Origin: Listeria ivanovii subsp. londoniensis
Lineage (GTDB): Bacteria; Bacillota; Bacilli; Lactobacillales; Listeriaceae
Length of the DNA: 64,000 nucleotides
Assembly: GCF_000763495.1 (NCBI RefSeq)
Contig: NZ_CP009576.1
Span: 2,428,001-2,492,000, forward strand
Direction: 5' to 3'
The notes under the pieces are model-generated. The model was given only the letters and a program-made list of their open reading frames with translations, was not told the origin of the DNA and did no database searches. Positions 22,598-33,192 of the stretch are shown in pieces. Position 1 is the first letter of the stretch. Each line of letters opens with the position of its first letter. The position numbers were made by a program, and so were the translations under genes.

Positions 22598-22630
22598 AAA
22601 AACCTAATCCTTTTTGCAGATTAGGTTTTC
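22598..22630 (-). terminator. Terminator of the activator gene
   Basis: AAACCTAATC and GATTAGGTTT pair around a short loop with a following T-run on the minus strand; the stem contains the stop codon. Confidence 0.8.
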
Positions 22631-24001
22631 TTCTTCATTTATAACTTTAAGTTTCCGGTATAAGACGGAACGGTGAATACCTAGCGCATGGGCCGCTTTC
22701 GTCACATTTCCATCACTTTCTTCCAACACTCGCATAATAAAATGTTTTTCTACATCTTGCAAATAATCTTTTAAATAGAGCGACTCTTTCTTCGCTTGCT
22801 CTTTAAAATGCAAATCAAGTGCAAAGTCATCTGTCGCCTGTACTTCTACTTCTTTTGCACCTGACATAACCACTAATCGTTCGATTTGATTCCTAAGTTC
22901 GCGAACATTTCCAGGCCATCCATAAGAAAGTAACTCTTTTGTTTTATCGCCGCTAAGTTGAAAATCTTTTTGATATTTTTGATTAAATTTTTGGATAAAC
23001 TGGCGTGCAAGTCCGATAATGTCTTGAGGTCTTTCTCTGAGTGCCGGGATATGAACAGGAACAACATTAATCCGGTAATATAAATCTCGCCTGAAAGTTC
23101 CATTTTCCACCATTTCACCAAGATTACGATTTGTTGCTGAAATAAGCCGAAAACGACGCTTGGTTTCTATGGTTGAGCCGAGTCTTCTTACTTCGCCCGT
23201 TTCAAGCACTCGAAGCATCTTAGCTTGAAGTTCTAAAGGCATTTCCGAAATTTCATCTAAAAACAATGTACCTCCATCAGCAAGTTCAAGCATTCCTGGC
23301 TTTTCAATATCCGCTCCCGTAAATGATCCTTTTTCGTGACCAAATAATTCCGACTCAAATAGTGCCTTTGGAATAGCTGCGCAGTTAATCGAGATAAAAG
23401 GTCCAGCAGCTTGTTTGCTTTTTTCGTGAATATAGCGTGATAAGACTTCCTTACCAGTACCTGATTCCCCGTACAATAAAACCTTACTATCAAACGGGGC
23501 GATTTGGTTGCAGACACGAACGATTTGCTTCATCGCTACGCTTTCTGCCACCACAACGGTTCCTTCTTGCTCTTTGTAATCCTCTAAAAGAAGCGATTCT
23601 TGATTATCCGAAATCGCCTCACCACGCCAAGTCTTAAAACTATCTGGTTGTGTTTCATCTGACATCGTAACGACTAAATGAACGGTGCCATCTGGATAAA
23701 GAATCGGTGTTGAGGTAGAACGGATACTAAAACCTTTTTTTGTGTTAATTACTTTTGTTTTCTTTTCCTTCGTTCGGATTGCATCTAAAGTGACAGAATC
23801 ATTATAAACTCCATCCTCTACTAAATCTTTCACATTACAACGAAGCAATTCTTCTAAGGACATTCCAACAGTGAGTGCAGTAAACGTATTAGAAATTAAA
23901 ATATTACCTTCTGCATCAGTCACAAAAAGTGTTGTTGGCATATCTTTATTTAATTCACCAAATGACTGTACCCCCAGCAAGTTATCCATTAAGTCAAACA
24001 T
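22604..24001 (-). CDS. Sigma-54-dependent transcriptional activator (PAS-AAA-Fis)
   Basis: 465 residues from the ATG at 24001, which has AAAAGGATGAG upstream; a TTG 54 bp earlier lies inside the promoter region. There is a PAS sensor (about 20-130: TTLFVTDAEGNILISNTF), an AAA+ domain with Walker A GESGTGKE, the sigma-54 contact loop as GSFTGA, and Walker B GGTLFLDE, then a C-terminal Fis-type helix-turn-helix (GNVTKAAHALGIHRSVLYRKLK). It activates RpoN promoters by ATP-driven remodelling. The obvious target is the operon immediately downstream. The PAS ligand is unknown. Confidence 0.9.
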   Translation of the reverse strand: MFDLMDNLLGVQSFGELNKDMPTTLFVTDAEGNILISNTFTALTVGMSLEELLRCNVKDLVEDGVYNDSVTLDAIRTKEKKTKVINTKKGFSIRSTSTPILYPDGTVHLVVTMSDETQPDSFKTWRGEAISDNQESLLLEDYKEQEGTVVVAESVAMKQIVRVCNQIAPFDSKVLLYGESGTGKEVLSRYIHEKSKQAAGPFISINCAAIPKALFESELFGHEKGSFTGADIEKPGMLELADGGTLFLDEISEMPLELQAKMLRVLETGEVRRLGSTIETKRRFRLISATNRNLGEMVENGTFRRDLYYRINVVPVHIPALRERPQDIIGLARQFIQKFNQKYQKDFQLSGDKTKELLSYGWPGNVRELRNQIERLVVMSGAKEVEVQATDDFALDLHFKEQAKKESLYLKDYLQDVEKHFIMRVLEESDGNVTKAAHALGIHRSVLYRKLKVINEEENLICKKD

Positions 24002-24058
24002 TAATAGCTCATCCTTTTGGACTAGTTCCCTAGTTATTTGCTCACCATTACACAATCT

Positions 24059-24106: not shown

Positions 24107-25037
24107 TTAGTCCTTGTCCGCAATACAGACACGATTTCGTCCAGCAAGTTTCGCTTTATATAAAGCCTCATCCGCTGTTTTAAATAACCGTTCACTGGTC
24201 ATTATTCCGTCATGACATCCACTGACTCCAATAGAGATAGTAATTTTCACGGTTTGTCCAGTTGGAATTACAAAGTCGTACTCTTCAGTTTCTCGTCGTA
24301 TATGTTCAGCAAAATAATTTCCTTCGTCCACCGAGCACTATAACAAGATAAGTGAAAACTCTTCCCCACCATTTCTAAAAGCTTCCGAACCATCTGTTGT
24401 GTTTCCTTTTAAAGTCTTTGCGAGTTGCTTCAAAATGGCATCTCCCGCATCCTGCCCATATGTATCATTAATATTTTTAAAGAAATCGATGTCGATTAAC
24501 ATTAAAGTGACTTCTCTAATAGTTCCATCCATTACATGGTTAATTTTTTCATCAAACTGCCTTACATTGGAAAGTTGGGTTAAATAATCCAGTGTGGAAT
24601 CTTGCTCATATTTTTGAAAAAGTTGTTTAGACTTAATCATATTATCCATTAATCCTGCTGACACAAAACCGATAACTAGTGAAATTACTACAAAGGTAAT
24701 CATGTTTATCCAGTAGAAAGCTTCATTTGCTAAAATCAAATGTAAATTAATTACAACAAATCCGCTGGCAATAATATTTAATATAAAAACACCCAAACGT
24801 TATATCGCTCTAGTCGTTTGCTTAAAAGTGCTACCATAATCCCGATTAACATCATCACTACTCCGGCCATAACTGCTGCTAAATTGATAGAAATCCAAGA
24901 ATCCCAGTCCATACACCAATCACTACTTTTCTTCTCGTTGATATCTCTTTTGTTATTGGTTCTTTATAAATAATGGGAATAACATCAAAGCCCGCGAGTA
25001 ATATCGCCGCATTACTTACTGTTCTATCAAAAAGCAT
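24107..25037 (-). pseudogene. dgcC: Broken membrane-bound diguanylate cyclase (GGDEF), dgcC-like
   Basis: Reading leftward, a hydrophobic domain starts at an ATG at 25037 (MLFDRTVSNAAILLAG..., the xxFDxR pattern of 5TM-LYT sensors), then shifts frame near 24880-24905, shifts again near the five-base homopolymer at 24785-24789, and meets an in-frame TAG at 24338-24340, after which the same frame continues to the natural stop at 24107. Joined together it gives several membrane helices, a linker, and a GGDEF domain with an intact GGEEF signature and the C-terminal SIGVSG...ADEALYKAKLAGRNRV. The usual first membrane helices before FDxR are absent too. GGDEF enzymes make c-di-GMP; this copy cannot. 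Correspondence to EGD-e lmo2174 (dgcC) is from memory of gene order. Confidence 0.85.
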
Positions 25038-25216: not shown

Positions 25217-25978
25217 TTAGTAAGCTGTCCAACCAGCATCTGCTGTAACAATTGTCCCGTTGACAAAACTAGCATCATCCGAAGCTAAAAATAAAGCCAC
25301 TTTGGCGATTTCAGAAGCATCTCCAACACGTGGATTTGTTCCCATTCCAATCATCGCTCTTTCTTGTCCGAATTGATCTGGCGCATAAATAGTTGTTCCA
25401 ATATTCGTATTCACTGCTCCTGGTGCGATGGCATTACAGCGAATATTTTTATTAGCATATTGGAACCCAACGTTTTTAGTGAATCCAACTACCGCATGTT
25501 TAGAGGCTGTGTATGCTGCACCAGCTCGTGAACCAAATAATCCCCCAGCTGATGCAATATTAACAATAACACCTTGCCCTTTTTCTTCAAATATATGCAA
25601 TGCTTTTCTAGTAGCTCGCATGACTCCTGTTGTATTAATTGCGAAAACTTTATCCCAAAGTTCATCCGTTAATTCTCCAGCTGGAACAAAATTATCCATA
25701 ATTCCAGCATTATTAACTAAAATATCTAATGTACCATATTTTTCTACGGCTTGATTCATCATTTTTTGTACATCATCTTCACTCGTTACATTAGCAGCAA
25801 CAGCAAGAGCAGATCCTTTTCCTGCTTCAATTAATTCAACTGTTTTTTGTGCAGCTTCTAAATTCAAGTCTGCAACCACTACCTTCGCACCTTCATTTGC
25901 AAAAAGCAACGAAATTTGTTTCCCCATTCCTGAGGCTGCCCCTGTTACAACTGCTACTTTACCATCTAATTTCCCCAT
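25217..25978 (-). CDS. Short-chain dehydrogenase/reductase (SDR)
   Basis: 253 residues, classical SDR size. TGAASGMGKQ is the TGxxxGxG cofactor loop, NNAGIMD the NNAG motif, and the catalytic set is S of NIASAGG, with YTASK giving Y and K. The acidic D in VVADLNLEAAQ after strand 2 favours NAD(H). Substrate unknown; often annotated glucose or alcohol dehydrogenase. It is divergent from a TetR gene that probably controls it. Confidence 0.87.
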   Translation of the reverse strand: MGKLDGKVAVVTGAASGMGKQISLLFANEGAKVVVADLNLEAAQKTVELIEAGKGSALAVAANVTSEDDVQKMMNQAVEKYGTLDILVNNAGIMDNFVPAGELTDELWDKVFAINTTGVMRATRKALHIFEEKGQGVIVNIASAGGLFGSRAGAAYTASKHAVVGFTKNVGFQYANKNIRCNAIAPGAVNTNIGTTIYAPDQFGQERAMIGMGTNPRVGDASEIAKVALFLASDDASFVNGTIVTADAGWTAY

Positions 25979-27216: not shown

Positions 27217-30200
27217 TTATTCCTGCGTCTTCCTTGTTTTTCTTAATAGGAACAAGGCAAGTGCGCTAATAATAAATCCTGTAAAAATAACTTCATCTGG
27301 TAGCGTATCTCCTGTAGAAGGTAGGTTCACAGATTTTTCAGCTTTAATAGTTGTTTTATTGTTTTTTGCTGGGTTTACTGGATCTCTTGGTTTCGTTGGT
27401 CTGTTTGGATTAACCACAATTGGTCCTTTGTTTTTTGCATACACAAAAGTAACTTTTTGTGGTGCTCCTTTAAATACACCAGTTTTGTTAGTAGGATCTT
27501 TCACTAGTTGGTAATTTTTAATTTCTTTGGTATCTATTTTGTATGGCTTACCAACTACACCCGTGTGAATTTCTTCTGCAGCTAGTTCATTTCCTGCTGT
27601 ATCAACAAACACTGCAGTTACAGTTCCACTTACCATTTTTTTCGTGTTTTCTTTTGTTACTTGAAGTGACTGTTGTTGATTAAAAGCAATATTTACATTT
27701 ACTGGAGTCGTATCTAATTCATAGTCATTTGGTGCTTTAGTCTCTATTAATTGATAGTCTCCAGGTGCTAAATCCGTTAATTCGATTGCTCCGTTCTTAT
27801 CTGTTGTTAAGTTTTCTAGAACAGTTTTGTTTGCAGCAACTAATTTAAATATGGCTCCAGTAAGTGGGGCTTTTGTCTCGCTGTCTATTTTTGTTAAAGT
27901 AACAGACCCTGTAGACATTGTATTTGTTTTAGTTAACTGTATCGGTTCTTGTTGATTAAATTCAATAGTGAATTCAATCGGCGTCTTGTCCAACTGATAG
28001 CCATTTGGTGCTTTTACTTCTATAATTTGATATTTCCCTGGTGCTAAATCCGCTACGCTCAATTTACCATCTGCGTCTGTTACTAAGCCACTTTTCACTT
28101 TCGTTCCATCCGCTTGTTGTAACTCAAATTCTGCTCCGGACAAGTTCGCTTTCGTTTGGTCATCTTCTTTTGTTAATATCGCACTACCTGTTTTCACTGT
28201 ATTTTCTTTGGTTACTTCGATAGTTGTCGTTTGATTAAATACAATCGTAAACGGCACTGGAGTTGCATCTAGCTTGTAACCGGTTGGCGCTTTTGTTTCC
28301 ACAAACTGATAGTCGTCCGGTGCAAGATTAGATACAGTCAATTTACCATCCGCATCTGTTACTAAGTCCTGTTTCACTTTTGTTCCATCCGCTGTTTGTA
28401 ATTCGAATTCTGCTCCAGATAACGCCGCTTTAGACTCGCCATCTTCTTTCGTTAAAGTGACATTGCCCGTTTTGGCTGTGTTTTTTTTGATTACTTGAGT
28501 TGGTATAGCTTGGTTAAATGTAATGGAAAATGAAACAGGCGTTGCATTTAGTTGATAACCTATCGGCGCTTGTGTTTCCACGAATTGATATTCACCTGGT
28601 GCTAAATCTGCTACAGTCAATTTACCATCAGAATTTGTCACCAAACCATCTTTCACTTTTGTTCCATTCGCTGTTTGTAATTCGAATTCTGCTCCGGATA
28701 ACTTCGCCTGGTTACGGTCATCCTCTTTCGTTAAAATGACGCTACCTGCTTTTGCTGTATTTTCTTTCGTTATTTGGATAGGTGTTGCTTGATTAAATAC
28801 AATCGCAAACGGTACTGGAGTTGCATCTAATTTATATCCGGTTGGTGCTTCGGTTTCTACAAATTGATAGTTACCTGGCGCTAAATCTGTTACAGTCAAA
28901 TTACCATCTGCATCTGTTACTACATCCGTTTTCACTTTCGTTCCGTCTGCTGTTTGCAATTCGAATGCTGCTCCGGATAGCTTCATTTTAGATTTAGCAT
29001 CTTCTTTTGTTAAAATAACACTGCCAGTTTTGGCTGTGTTTTCTTTGGTTACTTGGATAGGCGTTGCTTGATTAAACCCAATAGTAAACGTGACTGGACT
29101 TATATCTAGCTTGTAACCGGTTGGCGCTTTTGTTTCTATGAATTGGTAGTTACCTGGTGCTAAATCTGCTACCTCAATTTTACCATCCTTGTCGGATATT
29201 AAGCTCTCTTTCATTTGCACTCCATCCGCTGTTTGTAACTCGAATTCTGCTTCAGACAACTTCGCTTTTGTCTCACTATCTTCTTTTATTAAAATCACAC
29301 TGCCAGTTTTGGCTGTATTTTCTTTGGTTACTTCGATAGGCGTCGCTTGATTAAAAATAATGGTAAATGCTACCGGAGTTGCATCTAGCTTGTAACCGGT
29401 TGGCGCTTTTGTTTCCACAAACTGATAGTCGTCCGGTGCAAGATTAGATACAGTCAATTTACCATCCGCATCTGTTACTAAGACCTGTTTCACTTTTGTT
29501 CCATCCGCTGTTTGTAACTCAAATTCTGCTCCTGCTAATTTTGCTTTCGTTGTGTCATCTTCTTTTGTTAAAATCACACTGCCAGTTTTCGCTGTATTTT
29601 CTTTGGTTACTTCGATAGGCGTCGCTTGATTAAAAGCAATCACAAATGACACTGGGGTTGCATCTAACTGGTACCCAGTTGGTGCTTTTGTTTCCACGAA
29701 TTGGTAGTCACCTGGCGCAAGATCAGTTACAGTCAATTTACCATCCGCATCTGTTACTAAGTCCTGTTTCACTTTCGTTCCATCCGCTGTTTGTAATTCA
29801 AATTCTGCTCCAGATAATGCCGCTTTAGACTTGTCATCTTCTTTTGTTAAAACAACACTTCCAGAGACTTGTGTATTTTCAACCGTATAGCTTGCTACTT
29901 GACCATCAGCTCTAACAGTCACTTCTTTTCCTTCTTTGTATTCATCACTAATAGTATAGCCATCTGGCGCCTCAGTTTCTACTAATTTATATTTCCCAGA
30001 TTGAATTCCATCAAATAGAATTTTACCTTCTGCATTAGTGGTACCAATTTGCCCTGCTTCCTCACCATCCAATGTATAAAGTTGGAATTTAGCACCGGCT
30101 AGTTTTTTCGTATGATCTGCTTGATCTACTTTTGTAATTTCTAATGAACCAATTGTGGCAATTCCACTTCCGCTTCCCATCGTAAATGATGGCGCGATAG

Positions 30201-33192
30201 ACGCAGTGGATTTTTTATATGATTCAGGCAACACACCATAATCAGTAGCATCGACATTAGCTTCATTCGCAACGATTCCCGACATCAAGCTAACTGTACT
30301 GTAAGTCACTTTAATAGGCTCTGTTGCTGTATAGTCTTTAAATTGAATCGTAAAATTATTATTTTCAAAAGTAATATCGTAATACTTTGAATCAATCGTA
30401 TCTCCTGTGGTGCTATTAACTACTTTAAAACTGCTCTTCACTATTTGCGCACCAGTAGCTCCTGTCGTTAGCGTATCCGTGATAATTGGATTAGTTACAG
30501 GACGATTTGGAGCAATGTTTGTTAATTCCAAGGTCCAAAGTACTTGATTATTAAAGGCAGGAGAAATAGCAGCAGCTTTTGAAATTGCGCGATACCTAAG
30601 ATTTGCATAAGTTTGATAAGAGTAGGATTTTTGCCCGAACCCATTATCCGAAACTTTAGCCACATTGTTTACAGATTGGAAAAAATACCAATTTTCATCT
30701 AGTTTTGTACTATATTTAATAAAGACGCGTGATGTCCCCATATTAGCAAATTCTAAATGTATTTTCTTACTTGTCGTATCGATCGTTGTTGGATAATTAT
30801 TATCTCCAGGTACAGCAAGTGTCCCAACTGTTCTTAAAGGGACATATAAGCTCAACATTTCAGTCGTCGAATCCACATTACGATATTGTAATGAGTCTTC
30901 CACAAGCGTCAGTCCTTCTGGCATCTCATCATCAAAAATTAAATTATCATAGTCTTTTTCCATTGTGTTCACTGAAACAATCCAGTCGATATTCCCTGTT
31001 GAGGCATTATAGGAACCATACTTCTCACCATTATTCATGATGTTTGTATCTGGAGTTACTTCAGACTTTATTTCATCTATATGCCTTGAAATCCCAGTCT
31101 CATCATAGTAAATAGCATCTGCCTTATTATCAATTGTATTTGTAACATCAGATAAATCAATTTTTGTATTTATCTCTACTACAATTTTTTTATTTGTTGC
31201 ACTATAATCACCGATAAGTTGAATCGAAAAACCTCTTGGCGTGATATCTTTATCAATAGTATAGTCTCTGCCTTCTTTTAAAAAGGCTCGATTAGTCTCA
31301 TCTTTATACGCATATACATCATAGCTTTCTAAACTTGTTACACCAGAAGAGAACGTATCAGTAATACTAAGACGATTCATTTGAATCCTATCTGAGTTAG
31401 CAGTTATCGTCCATTTCATTGTATTATTAAAATAGTCAATCGTCCCTGCCTTTTTCTTCAATAAATCAGGTTGAAAGTTAATCGATGCCTCTGAGGAAAC
31501 ACCCTGTTCGTCCGTAATTTTATTTTTAATTTCTCGGCTACTAAAGTCTGTTACTTTGGTTGAATAGGTGATTTGGTAAGAATTTGTACTCGTATTTTTA
31601 TATGTTAAATCAAAATCCCCATTAGCTGAAATAGCAGAGGTAGTCCAGTCGCTGGATGCATCAGATCCAATGATTGGTGTGCCAGTCGTCGAATTAAAAA
31701 TGATATGATTTATTTTAAGGGAGTTCGCCACATATTCGACGCCACTATCTTCTAAAACGTCTTTCAGAACTGTAGTAGGCGATATCTCTTTCTTGTCAAA
31801 ATTGAAATCAATTGCCCAGTCAATACATTGTGTGGAAGTATTGTAAACAGCTCTCTTCTCAAGATGTTTATAGTTAATCATCTGCAAATAAACAATTGCT
31901 GAGTTTCCAGATAACTTCCCTTCTTCTCCAATTGTTTGTGCTTCTGTCGTAACATGAGTTATACCAATACTCGGTTTATTAACGGTACGCTCATAAGTTA
32001 CCTGGTATCCACTTGCAGCAAGTCCGCCATCAAGTAAAACGCTCATTCTGTTATTCTCATAAGTTAGTGTATAGTCGGTTCCTTCTATTAATTCCTTTTT
32101 CGTTCCGATAAATGTCCCACCCGCGCTTACATCACTAGAATAGACTTTGATAGTTGCTCTATCTATTGTTGTTGTCCCACCAGCAGTGAAATCAATTAAT
32201 TTTAATTCTCCTTTTGCATTTGTTTCTTTCGTTAAATTGAATTTTGCATCGACAGTTATTTTCTCTGGATTTACTACTCCAGGTCTTGCTGACATGTATA
32301 TGGCAGTCGGGTCGCTAGCATTAGGAATTATTTCAATTGGATAAACAGTATCTTCTCCCGCAGTTTTAAAAACAACATTTTGTTCGGTTTTATCTGTTGT
32401 TGTAAACATTTTAAAAGCTGTACTAATACTGATGTCGTAATCACCTTCTTGAACACCATCTTTTAAGAAGGTAATAGTCAAAGCATTGGTCTTCACGTTT
32501 AAAGACCATTCTGCTTCAGTGGATGGTAAAAAGTTCCCACTTATGTTGTTTGTACCAAAATCGAAGGCATCCGGCAAAATGGTTGTAAAAGTATCACCAG
32601 CTTTATAGTTTTTTCCAGTGAAGCTAAAGTTCATATCTAAAACAACACCACTACCATTTTTAACTCGATCTGTCTTGTTAAGTTCCTTTCCATTTCCATC
32701 TTTAAGCGTTACCTTTTTAAAAATATTTTCCGAAATAGCTGCTTTTAAATTCTTTTCTGAAACCGATTTTTTTTCAGATACAACTGTTTCTTCTATTTTA
32801 TTTGTAGTTTCCTTTTCTTTTGCAGAAATAGACGTAACTACTTCTTCTTTATCGGTTAATGTTACATTGTACTCATTTTCATCTAGTATATAACCTGGCG
32901 CTGCTGTTTTTTCTTTTACAACATATTCTCCAGCTGAAAGCGATTCATCTGTAAACTCCCCGTTTTCATGTATGGAAAGTTCCTTGCTTTCTCCTGTCTC
33001 TTTATTTTTCAGTTCGAAAACTGAGCCATTTATTTTTTCTTTTGTATCTTTATCTTCTTTCATGATTTTAAGTGTTGTTTGTTTTGATGCTTCTTCTGTT
33101 ATCGTTGCCAAAACAGGAGAAACATTTTGGAATACAAGTAGCCCAATCACAGCAGCGATTAGCATTTTCTTCCATTGTTTAATATTTCTCAT
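27217..33192 (-). CDS. Giant LPXTG surface protein, nine SpaA-type repeats
   Basis: 1991 residues. Signal peptide (about 1-30); one SpaA/Cna-B-type module (38-130); a long adhesin-like region (about 150-1010); nine tandem Cna-B/SpaA modules of 93 residues (about 1015-1851), each with LTKED (isopeptide Lys) and FVETKAPTGY (catalytic Glu); a MucBP-like module (about 1852-1920); and LPSTG at about 1957, followed by a hydrophobic segment and KTRKTQE. Sortase A would anchor it to peptidoglycan; internal isopeptide bonds would stiffen the stalk. The ligand is unknown. Paralogue of 33733-38319, at the EGD-e lmo2178 position. ATG with GGAGG. Confidence 0.9.
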   Translation of the reverse strand: MRNIKQWKKMLIAAVIGLLVFQNVSPVLATITEEASKQTTLKIMKEDKDTKEKINGSVFELKNKETGESKELSIHENGEFTDESLSAGEYVVKEKTAAPGYILDENEYNVTLTDKEEVVTSISAKEKETTNKIEETVVSEKKSVSEKNLKAAISENIFKKVTLKDGNGKELNKTDRVKNGSGVVLDMNFSFTGKNYKAGDTFTTILPDAFDFGTNNISGNFLPSTEAEWSLNVKTNALTITFLKDGVQEGDYDISISTAFKMFTTTDKTEQNVVFKTAGEDTVYPIEIIPNASDPTAIYMSARPGVVNPEKITVDAKFNLTKETNAKGELKLIDFTAGGTTTIDRATIKVYSSDVSAGGTFIGTKKELIEGTDYTLTYENNRMSVLLDGGLAASGYQVTYERTVNKPSIGITHVTTEAQTIGEEGKLSGNSAIVYLQMINYKHLEKRAVYNTSTQCIDWAIDFNFDKKEISPTTVLKDVLEDSGVEYVANSLKINHIIFNSTTGTPIIGSDASSDWTTSAISANGDFDLTYKNTSTNSYQITYSTKVTDFSSREIKNKITDEQGVSSEASINFQPDLLKKKAGTIDYFNNTMKWTITANSDRIQMNRLSITDTFSSGVTSLESYDVYAYKDETNRAFLKEGRDYTIDKDITPRGFSIQLIGDYSATNKKIVVEINTKIDLSDVTNTIDNKADAIYYDETGISRHIDEIKSEVTPDTNIMNNGEKYGSYNASTGNIDWIVSVNTMEKDYDNLIFDDEMPEGLTLVEDSLQYRNVDSTTEMLSLYVPLRTVGTLAVPGDNNYPTTIDTTSKKIHLEFANMGTSRVFIKYSTKLDENWYFFQSVNNVAKVSDNGFGQKSYSYQTYANLRYRAISKAAAISPAFNNQVLWTLELTNIAPNRPVTNPIITDTLTTGATGAQIVKSSFKVVNSTTGDTIDSKYYDITFENNNFTIQFKDYTATEPIKVTYSTVSLMSGIVANEANVDATDYGVLPESYKKSTASIAPSFTMGSGSGIATIGSLEITKVDQADHTKKLAGAKFQLYTLDGEEAGQIGTTNAEGKILFDGIQSGKYKLVETEAPDGYTISDEYKEGKEVTVRADGQVASYTVENTQVSGSVVLTKEDDKSKAALSGAEFELQTADGTKVKQDLVTDADGKLTVTDLAPGDYQFVETKAPTGYQLDATPVSFVIAFNQATPIEVTKENTAKTGSVILTKEDDTTKAKLAGAEFELQTADGTKVKQVLVTDADGKLTVSNLAPDDYQFVETKAPTGYKLDATPVAFTIIFNQATPIEVTKENTAKTGSVILIKEDSETKAKLSEAEFELQTADGVQMKESLISDKDGKIEVADLAPGNYQFIETKAPTGYKLDISPVTFTIGFNQATPIQVTKENTAKTGSVILTKEDAKSKMKLSGAAFELQTADGTKVKTDVVTDADGNLTVTDLAPGNYQFVETEAPTGYKLDATPVPFAIVFNQATPIQITKENTAKAGSVILTKEDDRNQAKLSGAEFELQTANGTKVKDGLVTNSDGKLTVADLAPGEYQFVETQAPIGYQLNATPVSFSITFNQAIPTQVIKKNTAKTGNVTLTKEDGESKAALSGAEFELQTADGTKVKQDLVTDADGKLTVSNLAPDDYQFVETKAPTGYKLDATPVPFTIVFNQTTTIEVTKENTVKTGSAILTKEDDQTKANLSGAEFELQQADGTKVKSGLVTDADGKLSVADLAPGKYQIIEVKAPNGYQLDKTPIEFTIEFNQQEPIQLTKTNTMSTGSVTLTKIDSETKAPLTGAIFKLVAANKTVLENLTTDKNGAIELTDLAPGDYQLIETKAPNDYELDTTPVNVNIAFNQQQSLQVTKENTKKMVSGTVTAVFVDTAGNELAAEEIHTGVVGKPYKIDTKEIKNYQLVKDPTNKTGVFKGAPQKVTFVYAKNKGPIVVNPNRPTKPRDPVNPAKNNKTTIKAEKSVNLPSTGDTLPDEVIFTGFIISALALFLLRKTRKTQE
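27640..30150 (-). repeat. Nine tandem 279-bp repeats encoding SpaA modules
   Basis: Unit length is 279 bp (93 codons) over about 2510 bp. Some units are almost identical: the stretch beginning at 28261 recurs at 29377, exactly four units (1116 bp) away, over more than 100 bp with one noted change. The first module (near 30150) and the last are the most divergent. Confidence 0.9.

What the first reader, a model, noticed from the sequence alone, without database searches (positions are those of the whole stretch)
24107..25037. Diguanylate cyclase gene carrying three separate inactivating lesions
Seen: reading the minus strand, the 5TM-sensor/GGDEF protein is continuous only if one base is restored near 24880-24905, one base in the five-base homopolymer at 24785-24789, and the TAG at 24338-24340 is read through. 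The GGEEF signature and the C-terminal motif are intact, and the frame after the TAG is still open. Three independent lesions argue against a single sequencing error and for real decay. Known: Listeria has a small c-di-GMP network that controls exopolysaccharide and motility. Inference: this strain has lost one of its cyclases (dgcC).
Basis: partly seen in the sequence, partly recalled or inferred. Interest (0 to 1): 0.72.

Follow-up and report, generated by a model that had tools for sequence, protein, structure and literature searches.

The report
Dead cyclase in a dismantled signalling pathway
The broken gene is the last recognisable remnant of the enzymes that make the signal molecule c-di-GMP in this Listeria genome; most of the pathway and the slime-sugar operon it controls are gone too, so the strain is a natural test of what that signal is for.

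Summary
The dgcC gene at 24107-25037 (minus strand) is really broken, but one lesion was misread: the first break is a 145-bp deletion inside the membrane sensor, not one lost base. The one-base frame change and the in-frame TAG are present, and the start region is altered. No open piece holds a whole GGDEF domain.

The larger result lies outside the window. This remnant is the only GGDEF match in the genome. dgcA, dgcB, pssZ, pdeC, pdeB and the Pss exopolysaccharide operon pssA-E are deleted or broken as well: 11 of 12 network genes, against 2 of 86 other comparable genes. Only pdeD is intact.

The genome is very probably L. ivanovii subsp. londoniensis WSLC 30151 (inferred from size), not L. 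monocytogenes. The nearest relative G013 keeps most of the network; G011 lost it through other deletions.

In 25 Listeria genomes, stop-free cyclase genes and Pss genes occur together in 19 and are both missing in 6, in about five or six loss events. Best reading: repeated, here recent, loss of one dispensable signal-plus-output module. Gene decay is ordinary; the all-or-none pattern is informative.

The parts
24107..25037 (-). dgcC remnant (orthologue of lmo2174), about 140 bp shorter than intact copies
   Evidence: only GGDEF match in the genome
24879..25037 (-). first open piece (52 aa), start of the membrane sensor; opens at an ATG in place of the relatives' TTG, whose frame (TTG at 25030) stops after four codons
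   Evidence: no Pfam match
24891..24892 (-). junction of a 145-bp, frame-changing deletion in the sensor part
24785..24797 (-). one-base frame change
24338..24796 (-). second open piece (152 aa): end of the sensor and first half of GGDEF with the GGEEF motif (profile positions 2-88 of 161)
24338..24340 (-). in-frame TAG inside the GGDEF domain
24107..24331 (-). third open piece (74 aa): second half of GGDEF (profile positions 99-161 of 161)
22604..24055 (-). intact neighbour downstream: sigma-54-type activator with PAS-like region (context)
25217..25978 (-). intact neighbour upstream: short-chain dehydrogenase (context)

Best explanation
The locus is a recently inactivated dgcC, one piece of a c-di-GMP/Pss pathway that this lineage has dismantled. 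In L. monocytogenes the cyclases DgcA-C make c-di-GMP, PdeB-D remove it, and the receptor PssE switches on the Pss exopolysaccharide synthase (published). Here no cyclase gene is whole, receptor and synthase operon are gone, and two of three phosphodiesterase genes are deleted or broken; the genome should make no c-di-GMP and no Pss. Shown: the gene states, junctions that differ between lineages, and co-absence of cyclases and Pss in the genus set. Inferred: once either Pss or the signal was lost the other half had no use and decayed. Which went first, and whether selection or drift started it, is not known.
For: One GGDEF match in the whole genome, the remnant. About 1.98 kb deleted from inside dgcA to inside pssZ, with frame changes in the dgcA stub and the pssZ piece and two in pdeC. 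pdeB missing, pss reduced to short remnants. 11 of 12 network genes hit against 2 of 86 others. PilZ and HD_5 not found, controls worked. In 25 genomes the PssE-type match and PssC occur in 19 of 19 with stop-free cyclases and 0 of 6 without. First- and second-position changes since the split from G013: 31 on this branch and 5 on the other in the network pieces, against 16 and 14 in four flanking genes.
Against: pdeD is intact, which a total decay does not predict. dgcC shows little sign of long neutral drift, so its loss is recent and could be a strain feature. pdeC is broken only by two one-base insertions, the kind of error a PacBio-only assembly can hold. SerRS alone joins G000 with G011 (0.78), against the four-gene tree, which leaves a small chance that part of the loss is shared. 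One genome; no measurements.
Confidence: 0.85

Rival explanations
1. The breaks in dgcC are sequencing or assembly errors and the gene works.
For: The matching published genome is PacBio-only, and one of the dgcC breaks is a single base at a run of bases.
Against: A 145-bp deletion and a TAG are not of that kind. In the same genome stretches, none of 86 other comparable genes is shown frame-broken: 83 intact, one start difference that G013 shares, two variable genes absent. Three other network loci carry large deletions.
Confidence: 0.03
2. The losses are background decay in a genome with many pseudogenes; hitting this network is coincidence.
For: The published record lists 104 pseudogenes and 3,015 genes.
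Against: Four separate loci of one pathway are hit; G011 lacks the same set with other junctions; the two halves of the pathway go together in 25 of 25 genomes. The stretches were chosen around these genes, so the census is not a genome-wide rate.
Confidence: 0.07
3. The pieces still work: the two halves of the GGDEF domain are made separately (a GTG lies just after the TAG) or the TAG is read through, giving some cyclase.
For: Both halves are open, GGEEF is kept, and substitutions look near normal.
Against: The sensor has lost about 48 codons and its frame; no piece holds a whole domain; with PssE and Pss gone the product would have no known receptor.
Confidence: 0.04

Closest known systems
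L. monocytogenes c-di-GMP/Pss network: DgcA-C, PdeB-D, PssA-E (PMC4125290: abstract, sections 6, 7, 10 and part 1 of the Discussion read)
   Same: Same genes in the same order where they remain; the dgcC remnant, dgcA stub, pssZ and pdeC pieces and pdeD are recognisable
   Different: Here 11 of the 12 genes counted (pssZ included) are broken or absent; the paper calls the enzymes highly conserved in Listeria, L. ivanovii included
G011, an unnamed Listeria genome (about 81% identical in four genes)
   Same: No GGDEF match, no PssC, no pdeB-type EAL match; pdeD kept
   Different: Other junctions; dgcC cleanly absent; dgcA stub joined in frame to the PdeC EAL part
G013, probably L. ivanovii subsp. 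ivanovii (about 95% identical in four genes)
   Same: dgcC lost as well
   Different: By another, larger deletion; keeps dgcA, dgcB, pssZ, pdeB, pdeC, pdeD and pssA-E as open frames

Membership tests
DgcC (Lmo2174) orthologue | Same gene neighbourhood and sequence as dgcC of relatives | tested here: met
   75% DNA identity to G012 dgcC over 928 columns between the same neighbours
DgcC (Lmo2174) orthologue | One frame with 5TM sensor and whole GGDEF domain | tested here: not met
   Three pieces; sensor deleted in part; GGDEF split
Diguanylate cyclase | GG(D/E)EF signature | tested here: met
   GGEEF in the middle piece
Diguanylate cyclase | Enzyme activity | not testable with these tools
   Needs an assay; sequence says inactive
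Working Listeria c-di-GMP/Pss pathway | At least one whole cyclase, the PssE receptor and the pssA-E operon | tested here: not met
Working Listeria c-di-GMP/Pss pathway | EAL phosphodiesterase | tested here: met
   pdeD only, 236 aa, EAL match

The most novel reading that the evidence does not exclude
In Listeria, Pss exopolysaccharide is the only output of c-di-GMP that selection maintains, so cyclases and Pss behave as one removable module lost as a whole about five or six times among 25 species genomes. The second, unknown c-di-GMP target proposed for L. monocytogenes would then not be enough to keep cyclases where Pss is gone. The pdeD kept in two cyclase-free lineages either has another job or is on its way out.
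Probability: 0.45. Interest if true: 0.6.

Novelty: new member of a known kind. Interest (0 to 1): 0.45.

Why it matters
A paper states that the c-di-GMP enzymes are highly conserved across Listeria, L. ivanovii included (PMC4125290, Discussion). This genome has no whole cyclase, receptor or Pss operon, and five other genomes of the set share that state (one of them an incomplete assembly). Such strains are natural controls for what c-di-GMP does in the genus. The all-or-none pattern makes a direct prediction: a Listeria genome with working cyclases and no Pss should be rare or absent. In the paper searches made (open-licence papers, most judged from listings) I saw no report of this loss; that is not proof that none exists.

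Tried and rejected
Single-gene decay or sequencing error as the whole story: rejected after the GGDEF and EAL searches and the census. The census tested 117 G012 frames; by my reading 19 lie outside or at the edge of the G000 stretches held (17 on L203, 2 on L204) and were dropped, leaving 98: 84 intact (pdeD among them), one with a later start as in G013, two absent (a 103-aa frame and a 621-aa frame in the variable surface-protein region), 11 network genes. One search was a first version with G013 as reference: 95 frames, 66 intact at 80% identity, 4 short and 25 absent, most of these outside the stretches held. One search used 2 of 87 for the others (2 of 86 is right) and 6 for a count that one search corrects to 5; I do not rely on its p-values, because genes in one operon are not independent and the stretches were chosen around the network.

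Mended readings: the dgcA and pssZ rows ran through the deletion and are invalid (one search replaces them). The pdeC row reached past the gene's end and counted a natural stop; one search shows two one-base insertions and no stop change.

pdeD: dN/dS between G000 and G013 is 0.20 on few changes, within the range of four flanking genes (0.02-0.23), and first/second-position changes are 6 here against 2 in G013, so it is open whether pdeD is still needed. The EAL-like gene near serS in G014 and G023 looked different and was not pursued.

The c-di-GMP riboswitch search says nothing, since its controls were silent too. No structure was predicted; it would not decide the question. Paper passages seen that did not bear on the loss: PMC3019230 (no such terms), PMC10172500, PMC11439720; PMC5736727 lists pdeD in a table of a sensu stricto / sensu lato comparison.

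Full report
The gene. Three open pieces lie on the minus strand of 24107-25037. In 15 of 18 records scanned the same gene is one frame of 357-360 aa; the three without it were the window, G013 and G011, and some of the 15 are one genome under two handles. Against ten intact copies the window's copy has a 145-bp deletion at about 24892, a one-base deletion near 24795 and the TAG at 24338-24340. The TTG start used by relatives leads into a stop after four codons here, while an ATG at 25037 opens the following frame. GGDEF is split: profile positions 2-88 in one piece and 99-161 in the next. No piece holds a whole catalytic domain, so the gene is almost certainly dead; that is inference from sequence.

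Age. The remnant's substitutions are close to those of intact copies: dN 0.092 and dS 1.229 against G020; at columns where all ten intact copies agree, 19 of 477 first and second positions and 16 of 77 third positions have changed (G020 by the same count: 33 of 593 and 16 of 103). The loss looks recent on the scale of species splits.

Organism. The window lies in a single-contig genome of 3,045,035 bases. The published L. ivanovii subsp. londoniensis WSLC 30151 has 3,045,017 bases, and the subsp. ivanovii type strain 2,919,538, against 2,919,550 for G013 (PMC4319588, whole text read; G013 size). G013 is the nearest relative (94% in this region; 95% in four genes).

The pathway. Names follow PMC4125290. 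PdeB and PdeD were told apart by gene order, and pssA-E by order and by the PssE match in the last gene; both are inference. The gene between dgcB and pdeC (lmo1913) matches PDB 6r2m (E 9e-155), which PMC7479077 gives as PssZ, a Pss-degrading enzyme (passages). The genome has one GGDEF match, this remnant. Of the 19 other genomes with GGDEF matches, 14 have four.

Loci in this genome. dgcA-dgcB-pssZ-pdeC (about G000 2,173,300-2,175,300): compared with G013 about 1.98 kb is missing from inside dgcA to inside pssZ, with a 6-bp overlap of the flanking matches. dgcB is gone; the dgcA stub has a one-base deletion; the pssZ piece has four deletions and two stops; pdeC has two one-base insertions. 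Neighbouring genes are whole. pdeB: about 0.75-0.8 kb missing near 211,540-211,580. pssA-E: of the 7.2 kb operon of G013, matches of 190, 42 and 122 bases remain near 598,245-598,644. pdeD (about 196,700-197,410): whole 236-aa frame with an EAL match.

Is it special to this pathway? With G012 as reference 117 frames were tested and 19 dropped as outside or at the edge of the stretches held. Of 98, 84 are intact (pdeD among them), one has a later start as in G013, two are absent, and 11 are broken or absent, all 11 network genes. The stretches were chosen around the network, so this shows a clean background, not a genome-wide rate. In the pieces that remain, first- and second-position changes since the split from G013 are 31 on this branch and 5 on the other, against 16 and 14 in four flanking genes: relaxed constraint on this branch. 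The pdeC lesions alone could be assembly errors.

Other lineages. G013 keeps open frames for dgcA, dgcB, pssZ and pdeC, pssA-E, pdeD and pdeB, but its match ends about 50 bases inside the end of dgcC, and the dehydrogenase match is missing too. G011 has no GGDEF match and no PssC; dgcC is missing cleanly; its operon deletion runs from dgcA into pdeC; its pss remnants, including an 89-base match inside the first pss gene, have other end points; its two EAL matches are of the PdeC and PdeD types. Four genes place G000 with G013, support 1.0; SerRS alone joins G000 and G011 with 0.78. Different junctions and identity favour separate losses.

Genus pattern. Of 25 genomes, 19 have strong stop-free GGDEF matches, and all 19 have the weak PssE-type match and PssC. 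Six have neither: G000, G001, G009, G011, G014, G021. G001 is 89% complete, so its absences are less sure. A loss-only count on the SerRS tree gives five events with G000 and G011 as one, hence six if apart. EAL matches persist in G000, G001, G011 and G014 and are absent in G009 and G021.

Reading. For L. monocytogenes, PssE is the only predicted receptor, a second unknown target is proposed, and inactivating the dgc genes gave no observed phenotype in the laboratory. The all-or-none pattern fits one dispensable unit of signal and output, and argues against another output strong enough to keep cyclases by itself. PilZ and HD_5 were not found in this genome; the riboswitch search is uninformative. 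Elevated c-di-GMP lowered invasion and organ load in that species (abstract), so loss might be favoured in a host-associated lineage; neutral loss fits as well, and nothing here separates them.

Limits. One strain; a reported PacBio-only assembly; one genome per species; unnamed relatives; no measurements.

Noticed in passing
L185:9655-10461 (G011): The operon deletion in G011 leaves an open frame of 268 aa that starts with the DgcA membrane segments and runs in frame into the PdeC EAL domain: a deletion-born, membrane-anchored phosphodiesterase-like protein.
   Followed up: partly
L213:3248-3979 (G023) and L214:4001-4732 (G014): A divergent EAL-like protein of 243 aa lies near serS beside regulator-like genes; it is kept in G014, which has no GGDEF match.
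   Followed up: no
window 27217-33192: A 1991-aa repeat-rich surface protein gene; the corresponding region differs between G000, G013, G011 and G012 and matches itself at many offsets.
   Followed up: no
L182 around 8016 (G013): In G013 dgcC and the dehydrogenase gene next to it are missing and a repeat-rich surface protein gene follows closely, so dgcC was lost there by another event.
   Followed up: partly
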